IMG/VR virus record: IMGVR_UViG_3300021502_000007
Coordinates: 1-25,787 of that record
Strand: one strand, 5' to 3'
DNA: 25,787 nucleotides
DNA from: a virus
Of the stretch, positions 13,476 through 24,510 are shown one piece after another. Numbering within the stretch: the first letter of the stretch is position 1; every line of letters starts with the position of its first letter. The position numbers were made by a program, and so were the translations under genes. The notes beneath the pieces are model-generated. The model did no database searches, had not been told where the DNA came from, and was given only the letters and a program-made list of their open reading frames with translations.

Positions 13476-14029
13476 TATCTGTCCTCGTCCCAACTATCAC
13501 TATCCTGAATAAGACCAATACCTTCACTATCCTGACCTTTAGCTTTTTGCAATCTTTTCTCATATAATTGTTCACGAGTTACCATCATCTTTTCAGAAGA
13601 AGTCATTACATAAGTTATTTTAGAGGCTAAAAGTTCAGCCAAAGCATCAACAAATTTCGGTTTTAATAATCTAAGTTCGACTGTATTAGAGATATAAACA
13701 ATATTCATTGTCTCTCCATTATAATATAAGTATCCGCTTTCTTCCCGGAAGTCTATTTCTTCATCAGTATCTTCTATAACGATATGATTATAATCTGCAG
13801 GGATTGCAAATCTTGTACTATACCCAAAGGCTGGTTCATTTATATCTGCAGATAATGTCGCCCTCTTTCTTGCAAAAGTCCAATTGTGTTCTGATAATGC
13901 AGATTCAAGGCATTGTTTAAAAAAGGTGTCTGCTGCTGTAGATACTTTATTCTGTTCATCTGGGTCTGAAAGAGGCAATTCCCCTACAAGTAGAATTGCC
14001 ATGTTTTTAATTTCTAATTCATTTGCCAT
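13475..14029 (-). CDS. Tail tubular protein A / head-to-tail adaptor (T7 gp11-like)
   Basis: A 184-aa protein with the layout of gp11-type tail tubular proteins: early CLESALSEHNWTFARKRATL, then PAFGYSTRFAIPADY (the P-x-F-x-Y...LP-D element), a YLYYNGETMNIVYI strand pair, and a C-terminal helix with ALAELLASKIT and QLYEKRLQKAK. These proteins form the ring between portal and nozzle. The chosen start is ATG at 14029, directly behind GGAGAAATC. The frame stays open 12 codons further up, but that stretch would read through the hairpin repeat and is unlikely to be coding. The gene lies after a terminator and a 24-nt hairpin, and its TAA stop overlaps the ATG of the gp12-like gene. Confidence 0.87.
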   Translation of the reverse strand: MANELEIKNMAILLVGELPLSDPDEQNKVSTAADTFFKQCLESALSEHNWTFARKRATLSADINEPAFGYSTRFAIPADYNHIVIEDTDEEIDFREESGYLYYNGETMNIVYISNTVELRLLKPKFVDALAELLASKITYVMTSSEKMMVTREQLYEKRLQKAKGQDSEGIGLIQDSDSWDEDR

Positions 14030-14038
14030 GATTTCTCC

Positions 14039-14062
14039 AAAAACGCAACTACTTGCGTTTTT
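14039..14062 (-). repeat. 24-nt hairpin repeat, copy 1
   Basis: Perfect inverted repeat, arms AAAAACGCAA and TTGCGTTTTT with a 4-nt CTAC loop on the plus strand (GTAG on the transcribed strand). It is identical to 21838-21861 and, in inverse orientation, to 23011-23034. The T-run of the second arm touches the ribosome site of the gp11-like gene, so in the mRNA the hairpin sits immediately 5' of GGAGAAA. The form (A-rich, GC core, U-run, on both strands) suits a bidirectional terminator, but a processing or antitermination site is possible. Confidence 0.85.
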
Positions 14063-14063
14063 C

Positions 14064-14097
14064 AAAAAAACGGGGGAACAGGTAGACCTGCTCCCCC
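14064..14097 (-). terminator. Intrinsic terminator after the capsid genes (T7 T-phi position)
   Basis: On the minus strand a 12-bp stem (GGGGGAGCAGGT against ACCTGTTCCCCC, one G-U pair) closes over a very small loop and is followed by seven T's. It begins 7 bp after the stop of the cement-protein gene and precedes the tail genes. T7 has its main terminator at the equivalent point, between capsid gene 10 and gene 11. It would raise capsid-gene mRNA relative to tail mRNA. Confidence 0.92.
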
Positions 14098-14104
14098 ATG
14101 TGAT

Positions 14105-14479
14105 TTAGCCTACAAAACCAGCTGTCATTTTACCAGCTGTAGGTGTATCGACGACTGAAGTTATTTTAATAAACTGCTCACAGCCATCAGGGATAGGTAA
14201 TTTAAACTCAGCTCCAGGTATAAATTCAGCTTTCAAATATTCCCTTGATACTATAAGGTTGTTATCAAAAGATCCGCCCTCTGTAGCTTCAGTTTTAATG
14301 GTAAATACTACTCCAGTACCAGTAGCAACCAAAGCTTCAGTGACAACTATACCAATAAATGCCTGTTCCCCTATATGGAGATCCAGATTAGGATCATTAA
14401 GGTTAATAACATCCCCAACATCACCGTTTGCAACGATTGCTTCATCATCACAAAACATTACTTTTCTATCAAATAGCAT
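14105..14479 (-). CDS. Capsid cement/decoration protein, Bbp16-like
   Basis: A 124-aa, beta-rich, acidic protein directly after the major capsid gene. It has the build of Bbp16-type cement proteins of BPP-1/epsilon15-like phages: an N-terminal segment MLFDRKVMFCDDEAIV, a Gly-rich middle (GDVGDVINL), alternating hydrophobic strands (FIGIVVTEALVATGTGVVFTIKTE), and an end giving IPDGCEQFIKITSVV...GKMTAGFVG. It would bind the outside of the capsid and stabilise it. ATG at 14479 has a strong AAGGAGG site. It is separated from the capsid gene by 11 bp and followed by a strong terminator. Family assignment is by recognition and synteny only. Confidence 0.78.
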   Translation of the reverse strand: MLFDRKVMFCDDEAIVANGDVGDVINLNDPNLDLHIGEQAFIGIVVTEALVATGTGVVFTIKTEATEGGSFDNNLIVSREYLKAEFIPGAEFKLPIPDGCEQFIKITSVVDTPTAGKMTAGFVG

Positions 14480-21827: not shown

Positions 21828-21837
21828 CCTTTCTCCC

Positions 21838-21861
21838 AAAAACGCAACTACTTGCGTTTTT
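21838..21861 (-). repeat. 24-nt hairpin repeat, copy 2
   Basis: Identical in sequence and orientation to copy 1 (14039-14062): 10-bp perfect stem around a 4-nt loop, A-run before and T-run after on either strand. It lies in the 56-bp gap after the small membrane-protein gene and directly before the GGGAGAAAGG of the next ORF. Probable terminator or regulatory hairpin. Confidence 0.85.
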
Positions 21862-21883
21862 TAAATTCTATAGAAAATTTTTT

Positions 21884-22918: not shown

Positions 22919-23010
22919 TTTTATCAATTTTACATAACTTTGTGGTGTGAATAGAGTGATATTGAGTATGATAGTATGTATTTGTGTTTCTATATCTACA
23001 TTGTAACCCC

Positions 23011-23034
23011 AAAAACGCAAGTAGTTGCGTTTTT
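23011..23034 (+). repeat. 24-nt hairpin repeat, copy 3 (inverted relative to copies 1-2)
   Basis: The same 24 nt on the opposite strand (GTAG loop on the plus strand), so all three copies differ in orientation in a way that matches rightward reading here and leftward reading for the others, except that this copy lies in the divergent control region rather than against a ribosome site. It is about 87 bp before the first rightward ORF. Confidence 0.85.
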
Positions 23035-23071
23035 GCGCCCTGTTTGGTGATAATGGAGATATTTGATACTC

Positions 23072-23382: not shown

Positions 23383-23538
23383 ATGAAAAACAAATGCAAT
23401 AAATCACGACAGATCAAAGCAATTAAACGTTCTATAAAGAAATATGGTCCGGGTTATAATAATTCTAAGCTTAAAATACTTGCTAAACTTACTGATAAAT
23501 CACTCCAAAATAACTTATATAGCACTATGTCATTTTAA
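23383..23538 (+). CDS. Small basic ORF, 51 aa, unknown
   Basis: Very basic peptide (MKNKCNKSRQIKAIKRSIKKYG...LAKLTDKSLQNNL) beginning nine bp after the preceding stop, with AAGGAAC upstream of the ATG. Charge and size suit a nucleic-acid- or RNA polymerase-binding peptide, but nothing specific is recognised. Confidence 0.55.
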   Translation: MKNKCNKSRQIKAIKRSIKKYGPGYNNSKLKILAKLTDKSLQNNLYSTMSF

Positions 23539-23840
23539 ACCTAAACAGCAGGCATCTTACTTTTCCCCGTTACCAGGGATTAATCTAGTCGTCGCGGTCT
23601 TTTAATTATGGCATGGTCACCTTCGTTGTCAAGGGGCTAGCCAGAAACAAAATAAATAAATTAGTGTTCAAATAGGGAAAAAATCAATTTATTTATTTTC
23701 TTTCTTCTGCATCTCGACATATATGCTTTAAATACCAGTCTCTTCACTGCCTCGACCCCTTGACAACTCAGGCTCAACACATGCTGTGGGATTATTCACA
23801 CCTCGACAAAGAGGCAGTACGAACAAACAGGAGACATTAT
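23539..23840. other. 302-bp non-coding block with nested inverted repeats
   Basis: No credible gene is seen in either strand; a weak TTG/ATG extension of the next ORF enters it without a ribosome site. Structures: 12-bp arms GTTGTCAAGGGG (23625-23636) and CCCCTTGACAAC (23756-23767); inside them, perfect 14-bp AT-only arms (23649-23662 and 23686-23699); an 8-bp palindrome GGCTAGCC (23635-23642); and 8-bp arms ACTGCCTC (23746-23753) and GAGGCAGT (23811-23818), which cross the outer pair and could form an alternative fold. CTCGAC occurs three times (23712, 23751, 23802). It could be a replication origin, a structured RNA, or a recombination site. Placement just upstream of early genes and near ssb favours an origin or RNA (inference). 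Confidence 0.65.
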
Positions 23841-24029
23841 ATGAAAATGACAACACATTATGACAGAGAAAGAGAATCTGTAATCTGTACAGAAGTAGAA
23901 TCGGGATTAGAGATTGTATTCAATAAGAATTACTTTTCTATTTCTGAAATACTTAGAGAAACCGATCTTATCATCGGTGACACTGACGAATGTAGACAGT
24001 GTATTTCAGATTTATATGATTCACTTTAA
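23841..24029 (+). CDS. Small acidic hypothetical protein
   Basis: A 62-aa acidic protein (MKMTTHYDRERESVICTEVESGLEIVFNKNYF...DECRQCISDLYDSL) with three Cys, two as CRQC near the C-terminus. Start at ATG 23841 chosen for GGAGA eight bases ahead. The frame is open to 23760 (TTG) but that part lies in the inverted-repeat block and has no ribosome site. Followed by a hairpin. Function unknown. Confidence 0.62.
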   Translation: MKMTTHYDRERESVICTEVESGLEIVFNKNYFSISEILRETDLIIGDTDECRQCISDLYDSL

Positions 24030-24060: not shown

Positions 24061-24084
24061 ATATTGCTATAGGAGAACATTATG
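24061..24084 (+). promoter_or_regulatory. Conserved leader element, copy 2 (ATATTGCTATAG + ribosome site)
   Basis: ATATTGCTATAGGAGAACATT runs into ATGAAC. The same pattern starts at 25078 with one inserted base and two substitutions, and in looser form at 23078. The CTATAGGAGA part resembles the -4 to +6 core of T7-family promoters (CTATAGGGAGA); upstream of it 12 of 17 positions match T7's. AT richness makes chance likeness quite possible. Confidence 0.4.
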
Positions 24085-24510
24085 AACAGAGAAGAATTGC
24101 AGAAAGCCGAAGTATCAAAAATCACAACTATCTTTAATCCGGAAGATTATAATACTTATGAGGAAGCCATGGAACAACTCGAATTCCTTGCAAGAGACGC
24201 AAGTATGCCGGAACAAATCAAGACTGTCTTCAATCGTAATTTCTACGGTTTTGTAAAACTAACCGCTAAACACTTTGAACTTGATTTTGATGTATTTGCT
24301 GATGTTGCAAAAGGTACTTCAAAACTTGCTAATCTAACTCCCGATGAAGCTGATTCAATTACTCTTATTGGAGACGATGATAAGTATTGTCTTAAACTTC
24401 TTGATTCAACAGGAAAATACAAATCAACCTTCTCACCCGAAACTGGGAAATGCAGGTTTCCTTCACACTGGTTTACAATGTACCATGTTGTAATGGTAAA
24501 TAACCTGTGA
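24082..24510 (+). CDS. Hypothetical early protein
   Basis: A 142-aa acidic protein with no recognised family. Mostly helical N-terminal half (NTYEEAMEQLEFLARDASMPEQIKTVFN), beta-like C-terminal end (KYCLKLLDSTGKYKSTFSPETGKCRFPSHWFTMYHVVMV). ATG at 24082 with AGGAGA eight bases upstream, following the conserved leader. Its TGA stop overlaps the GTG of the next gene (GTGA), implying coupling. Confidence 0.8.
   Translation: MNREELQKAEVSKITTIFNPEDYNTYEEAMEQLEFLARDASMPEQIKTVFNRNFYGFVKLTAKHFELDFDVFADVAKGTSKLANLTPDEADSITLIGDDDKYCLKLLDSTGKYKSTFSPETGKCRFPSHWFTMYHVVMVNNL

What the first reader, a model, noticed from the sequence alone, without database searches (positions are those of the whole stretch)
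23539..23840. Nested and crossing inverted repeats in a 302-bp non-coding block
Perfect 12-bp outer arms (23625/23756), perfect 14-bp AT-only inner arms (23649/23686), and 8-bp arms (23746/23811) that cross the outer pair allow two exclusive folds. Three CTCGAC repeats and a GGCTAGCC palindrome lie in the same block. No known RNA or site family was recognised. It could be a replication origin (AT-rich unwinding arms near ssb), a switch-like structured RNA whose second fold reaches the GGAGA site of the 23841 gene, or an invertible/recombination site. This is the best candidate here for an undescribed element.
Basis: partly seen in the sequence, partly recalled or inferred. Interest (0 to 1): 0.68.

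Follow-up and report, generated by a model that had tools for sequence, protein, structure and literature searches.

The report
Folded DNA promoter in a phage
In front of the early genes of a tailed phage lies a large hairpin that distant relatives keep although its letters have changed; it carries promoter signals laid out like the promoters that some plasmids use while their DNA is single-stranded, which would be unexpected in a double-stranded DNA phage, though only experiments can prove it works that way.

Summary
The nested inverted repeats are real and beyond chance: no shuffle of 1000 had a 14-bp arm or two arms of 12 bp. The 8-bp crossing pair is at chance level and is not kept. The window is a podophage fragment; the block sits before an operon carrying ssb. 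Two divergent relatives keep it at the same place: L005 (about 70% identical) and L015 (sequence largely replaced, nested hairpin kept). Besides the stems, the best-kept letters form a sigma-70-like promoter in the left arm: TTGACA-16-CATAAT (window), TTGATA-17-CAAAAT (L005), TTGAAA-17-CATAAT (L015). On the minus strand, the template of the ssb operon, the -35 box is paired in the hairpin while the -10 box is mostly unpaired. Among promoter-like sites, this one ranks 1 of 134, 3 of 256 and 1 of 91 for hairpin pairing; the plasmid F control, Frpo2, ranks 1 of 292. Best reading: an Frpo-like folded-DNA promoter that drives the ssb operon when that strand is single-stranded or extruded (confidence 0.42). 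Rivals: structured leader RNA, ordinary leftward promoter, origin-type site. No Rfam family, plasmid or catalogued phage matches. Only three lineages are known and activity is untested.

The parts
23589..23597 (-). P0, left side (TCGTCGCGG on +), closing helix below the -10 loop
   Evidence: Pairs 8 of 9 with 23801-23809 on the minus strand, one G-T; both sides identical in L005, replaced by GGGTT/AACCC in L015
23605..23610 (-). -10-like hexamer CATAAT with TG before it; mostly unpaired at the hairpin base
   Evidence: Promoter scan; base-pair probabilities 0.04-0.40; the stretch CATAATTAAAA recurs in L015
23611..23624 (-). P1, left side: promoter spacer, paired
   Evidence: Pairs with about 23769-23784; near-identical helix in L005, different but paired sequence in L015
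23627..23632 (-). -35-like hexamer TTGACA, inside stem P2
   Evidence: base-pair probability 1.0; TTGA kept in all three lineages
23625..23636 (.).
   Evidence: Perfect 12-bp pair with 23756-23767
23643..23662 (.).
   Evidence: 19 of 20 pairs with 23686-23705
23686..23705 (.). P3, right arm
23706..23755 (.). Variable branch P4 between P3 and P2; strong hairpin in L005, weak here
23756..23767 (.). P2, right arm; contains CCTTGAC
23767..23784 (.). P1, right side, CTCAGGCTCAACACATGC, identical in L005
23801..23809 (-). P0, right side (CCTCGACAA on +)
23792..23800 (+). Approximate start of a rightward RNA if the minus strand is folded (inferred only)
   Evidence: Counted from the -35 box on the folded strand; not measured
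23830..23834 (+). GGAGA ribosome-binding site of the first gene
   Evidence: sequence
23841..24029 (+). First gene after the element (62 aa, unknown); L005 has a different gene at this place
24082..24510 (+). Unknown early gene, kept in L005 and L015
24507..24902 (+). Unknown early gene, kept in L005 and L015
25101..25427 (+). ssb
   Evidence: phrog_44, E 2.5e-29; kept in L005 and L015

Best explanation
The block is a folded-DNA promoter that works like the Frpo/ssi single-stranded DNA promoters of conjugative plasmids. Shown by sequence: a large nested hairpin is kept in three phage lineages at the start of the ssb operon, with a sigma-70-like -35/-10 pair in its left arm. Inferred: when the minus strand, which is the template strand of this operon, is single-stranded (during replication or repair) or is extruded as a hairpin from supercoiled DNA, stem P2 supplies a double-stranded -35 box, P1 the spacer, P3 an AT-rich upstream stretch, and the unpaired CATAAT at the hairpin base a pre-melted -10 box. 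Host RNA polymerase would then use the same strand's 5' flank as template and make a rightward RNA starting near 23795. That RNA would be the message for 23841, 24082, 24507 and ssb, and could also prime the complementary DNA strand. In ordinary double-stranded DNA the same hexamers point left, away from the operon.
For: Conserved fold: z on the minus strand -3.76, -5.44 and -4.47 for window, L005 and L015; the plus strand is weaker in each (-2.05, -4.42, -2.88). In L015 the stem sequences are largely replaced yet still pair: CCTCGC/GCGAGG, CAAAAAAC/GTTTTTTG, TCAAGGCC/GGCCTTGA and a 21-bp upper stem with 19 Watson-Crick pairs. The kept letters are TTGA in the stem and CATAAT/CAAAAT at 16-17 nt. 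With DNA parameters the -35 box is paired (fully in the window; its first four bases in L015) and the -10 box mostly free in window and L015. Ranked by pairing of -35 plus spacer to the same strand upstream, the site is 1 of 134 (z -8.1), 1 of 91 (z -6.8) and 3 of 256 (z -3.5) in window, L015 and L005 genome. Control: F plasmid Frpo2 is 1 of 292 under relaxed rules, also on the template strand of ssb, with a 13-bp AT-rich upper stem above the -35-like box. Frpo2 is required in vivo for ssbF expression (PMC9849209), and Frpo-like elements before SSB genes recur (PMC11541004). No rightward sigma-70-like site was found in 4950-5900 of L015. On the minus strand the hand-made pair list has nine G-T cells against one A-C cell.
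Against: Tailed-phage DNA enters double-stranded, so when the minus strand would be single-stranded is unknown. Only three lineages are known, two of them close. The ranking test was designed after the pattern had been seen, and the hexamers in Frpo2 are my own reading, not checked against the original paper; Frpo1 shows only a weaker version. In L005 the -35 is 5 of 6 and the -10 is 4 of 6, the best fold of its outer part differs, and it ranks third. The same hexamers would make an ordinary leftward promoter. ssb is about 1.3 kb downstream with three or four genes between. No sequence similarity to plasmid elements.
Confidence: 0.42

Rival explanations
1. Structured RNA: the plus strand is transcribed through the block and the hairpin acts in the leader of the ssb operon, as an RNase III site, a stability or translation element, or an antitermination RNA of the HK022 put type.
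For: The block lies between a small plus-strand ORF (23384-23538) and the operon in the window and L005, so rightward transcription probably crosses it; both strands fold better than shuffles; paired changes in L015.
Against: The minus strand folds better in every lineage and wobble pairs lean to it; a minus-strand RNA across the hairpin has no conserved promoter. Does not explain why TTGA and the unpaired CATAATTAAAA are the best-kept letters in L015. No Rfam match.
Confidence: 0.25
2. Ordinary double-stranded leftward sigma-70 promoter (start near 23598) for antisense or late transcription; the hairpin is a side effect or an operator-like dyad.
For: 11 of 12 consensus with TG before the -10 in the window, 10 of 12 in L015, 9 of 12 with TG in L005, at the same place; late genes lie to the left.
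Against: Does not explain the pairing of the whole -35-to-spacer region with changed but still matching letters in L015. In the window leftward RNA would oppose small ORFs and meet the palindrome at 23011-23035; L015 has a perfect 12 of 12 promoter of its own before the late genes.
Confidence: 0.18
3. Replication site: origin or primer-start (ssi, sso, M13-type) where the folded strand recruits RNA polymerase, primase or an initiator to start DNA synthesis.
For: Hairpin next to ssb at the divergence point; GC-skew minimum about 1.3 kb away in the L005 genome. Overlaps with the favoured reading, since Frpo also makes primer RNA (PMC7736820).
Against: No iterons seen in the repeat search of the block; the skew change coincides with the change of gene direction; the HTH initiator-like gene is about 14 kb away.
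Confidence: 0.1
4. Invertible or recombination site.
For: Inverted arms exist.
Against: Same orientation in the near-identical contigs L003 and L004, at least 99.9% identity across the block; no recombinase recognised among the window proteins searched.
Confidence: 0.02

Closest known systems
Frpo/ssi single-stranded DNA promoters (F plasmid Frpo1 and Frpo2, ColIb-P9 ssi)
   Same: Large hairpin in the intergenic region before an ssb operon; folded strand is the template strand; -35-like box paired in the 3' arm; -10-like box in a loop; AT-rich upper stem 13-18 nt above the -35 box.
   Different: No sequence similarity; found in a tailed phage, not a conjugative leading region; hexamers closer to consensus; -10 at the hairpin base in a looser loop; variable extra branch P4; ssb not the first gene; activity untested.
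Bacteriophage N4 early promoters (hairpins extruded by supercoiling, SSB-activated; PMC4496689)
   Same: Podophage; early genes; hairpin on the template strand; inverted repeats extrudable from supercoiled DNA.
   Different: N4 hairpins are small and read by the virion RNA polymerase; here a stem system of about 220 nt with sigma-70-like boxes, and no such polymerase family recognised by Pfam in the large proteins searched.
M13 minus-strand origin and ssoA-type sites (from memory)
   Same: Hairpin in single-stranded DNA that RNA polymerase uses for primer synthesis.
   Different: Those serve rolling-circle genomes; no sequence comparison was made here.
EGeRS1 regions of pLS20 plasmids (PMC8708921)
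   Same: Long structured non-coding stretch directly upstream of establishment genes.
   Different: No promoter found in the fold, and the transferred strand is the non-template one.

Membership tests
Frpo/ssi ssDNA promoter | Stable hairpin with nested inverted repeats in an intergenic region | tested here: met
Frpo/ssi ssDNA promoter | -35 and -10 boxes in the 3' arm of the folded template strand, at about 16-18 positions | tested here: met
Frpo/ssi ssDNA promoter | -35 double-stranded, -10 in a mismatch or loop | tested here: met
   clear in window and L015, weaker in L005
Frpo/ssi ssDNA promoter | Sequence similarity to known Frpo/ssi | tested here: not met
   only chance-level matches
Frpo/ssi ssDNA promoter | Lies in the leading region of a conjugative element whose DNA enters single-stranded | tested here: not met
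   Record carries portal, capsid, terminase and tail genes
Frpo/ssi ssDNA promoter | Transcribed by RNA polymerase from ssDNA | not testable with these tools
   needs in vitro transcription
N4 virion RNA polymerase promoter | Short conserved hairpin with GC-rich heptamer at -17 to +1, and a virion RNA polymerase gene | tested here: not met
   Different size and sequence of hairpin; no RNA polymerase family in the large proteins searched
Known structured RNA (Rfam) | Covariance-model match at gathering score | tested here: not met
   permissive searches gave only sub-threshold hits
Invertible DNA element | Both orientations found, or a linked recombinase | tested here: not met
   One orientation in the near-identical contigs; no recombinase recognised in the proteins searched
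Theta origin | Initiator binding repeats beside an unwinding region, mapped start | not testable with these tools
   No iteron-like repeats seen in the block; mapping needs experiment

The most novel reading that the evidence does not exclude
A double-stranded DNA tailed phage controls its ssb/early operon with a sigma-70-type folded-DNA promoter that fires only when the template strand is single-stranded or extruded, so that ssb expression tracks exposure of single-stranded phage DNA.
Probability: 0.3. Interest if true: 0.82.

Novelty: new variant of a known kind. Interest (0 to 1): 0.58.

Why it matters
Promoters made from folded single-stranded DNA are known from conjugative plasmids and, with a special polymerase, from phage N4. 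One read by the ordinary host enzyme in a tailed phage would extend the principle to a large class of viruses and offer a simple feedback: expression of single-strand-binding protein switched on by single-stranded DNA. The geometry can be searched for in other phages without sequence similarity.

Tried and rejected
Rfam at gathering and permissive thresholds: nothing. Sequence searches in annotated phages and plasmids: no relatives. Pattern scans found only the same three contigs plus one coding-sequence match, L009, which by its flanks looks like an integrase-type gene. One Spirochaetes MAG contig (L020) ends just before the expected place. Promoter-plus-hairpin hits in other relatives: the two examined, L059 and L105, overlap open reading frames and were set aside. 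A genome-wide z scan timed out and was replaced by a GC-corrected energy scan, in which the block (minus strand) ranks fourth, after three overlapping windows at 13.9-14.2 kb. Crossing 8-bp fold: chance level. Put-like antitermination: possible, nothing specific found.

Full report
What the window is. The left 22 kb code on the minus strand for tail, capsid (GP7 family), portal (PF12236) and terminase proteins; the right end codes on the plus strand for small early genes and ssb. It is a podophage fragment held as a virus record. A MAG contig labelled Spirochaetes from a Guaymas-named sample carries a portal 66% identical, a weak hint at the host.

Observation. The inverted repeats are as described and not chance: 0 of 1000 dinucleotide shuffles gave a 14-bp arm or two 12-bp arms; 8-bp arms occur 0.46 times per shuffle, so the crossing pair is ordinary.

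Relatives. Contigs L003 and L004 are 99.9-100% identical. L005 comes from a 47,157-base contig whose ends overlap by 127 bases, hence a probably complete circular map of 47,030 bases; it holds the block at 70% identity before the same operon. L015 holds the same operon (homologues of 24082, 24507, ssb, radC), and upstream of it a region with little sequence similarity but the same nested hairpin. No other lineage with this early module was found in the searches made.

Fold. P1 and P3 differ almost fully between window and L015 yet pair in each; P2 keeps TCAAGG/CCTTGA and swaps its last two G-C pairs for C-G. Fold z-scores are more negative for the minus strand in all three lineages. My hand-made pair list has nine G-T cells against one A-C cell on that strand; this is suggestive only.

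Promoter signals. In the left arm, read on the minus strand, stands TTGACA-16-CATAAT with TG before the -10 (11 of 12). L005 has TTGATA-17-CAAAAT and L015 TTGAAA-17-CATAAT at the same place. CATAATTAAAA is identical in window and L015 although the adjoining stem is not. With DNA parameters the -35 is paired with probability 1.0 in the window and 0.86-0.93 for its first four bases in L015, the -10 mostly unpaired.

Test of the combination. For every promoter-like site I computed how strongly -35 plus spacer can pair with the same strand 40-260 nt upstream. The block is first of 134 in the window (-22.4 kcal/mol, next -13.7), first of 91 in L015 (-21.2, next -14.8) and third of 256 in the L005 genome (-14.4). 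In the leading region of F, relaxed to admit weaker boxes, Frpo2 is first of 292, on the template strand of ssb. Frpo2 has the same order from the tip: AT-rich 13-bp stem, 18 nt, -35-like TGGACA in the stem, -10-like TGTATC in a loop. The assignment of these boxes is mine. The rule was set after seeing the pattern, so the ranks describe rather than prove.

Mechanism. A hairpin of the minus strand places the boxes so that the polymerase would run into that strand's own 5' flank, that is rightwards into the ssb operon. Frpo2 does this for ssbF when F enters single-stranded (PMC9849209), and Frpo-like elements upstream of SSB genes recur in leading regions (PMC11541004). In a phage the single strand could arise in replication or repair, or the hairpin could be extruded by supercoiling as in N4 (PMC4496689). 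Shown: the conserved fold, the conserved boxes, their geometry. Inferred: that RNA polymerase uses it, the start near 23795, and the timing.

Membership. By origin it is not shown to be an Frpo: no sequence similarity and no conjugative context. The claim is that it works like one.

Noticed in passing
window 14037-14065, 21835-21864, 23008-23035; L003 8014-8043, 10108-10136: A 25-bp near-identical palindrome (AAAAACGCAAGTAGTTGCGTTTTTG) recurs in intergenic places on both arms of the genome, at 14037 directly before a GGAG ribosome-binding site; a shared operator, leader hairpin or terminator.
   Followed up: partly
window 13921-14200, minus strand: The strongest-folding stretch of the window apart from the block, around the palindrome and a GC-rich terminator-like hairpin; no Rfam match above threshold.
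   Followed up: partly
L020:1600-1800 and L019:950-1110: A conserved non-coding stretch upstream of the terminase gene contains CTGATGAGCTTTTGCGAAAC, which looks like a hammerhead core; Rfam does not confirm it.
   Followed up: partly
L005 337-440: A second strong hairpin (GCTCCC...GGGAGC) lies just left of the block in L005, weaker or absent in the window.
   Followed up: no
window 23384-23538; L005 217-336: A small basic protein (KNK..QIKA.KRSIKK.GPG..NSKL) just before the block is kept in L005 but was not seen in L015.
   Followed up: no
G199:C8:3347-3574 (L117): A weak match (E 4.5e-4) to the 24082 protein with two in-frame TGA codons, in a genome of the same class as the MAG; possibly a recoded phage or noise.
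   Followed up: no
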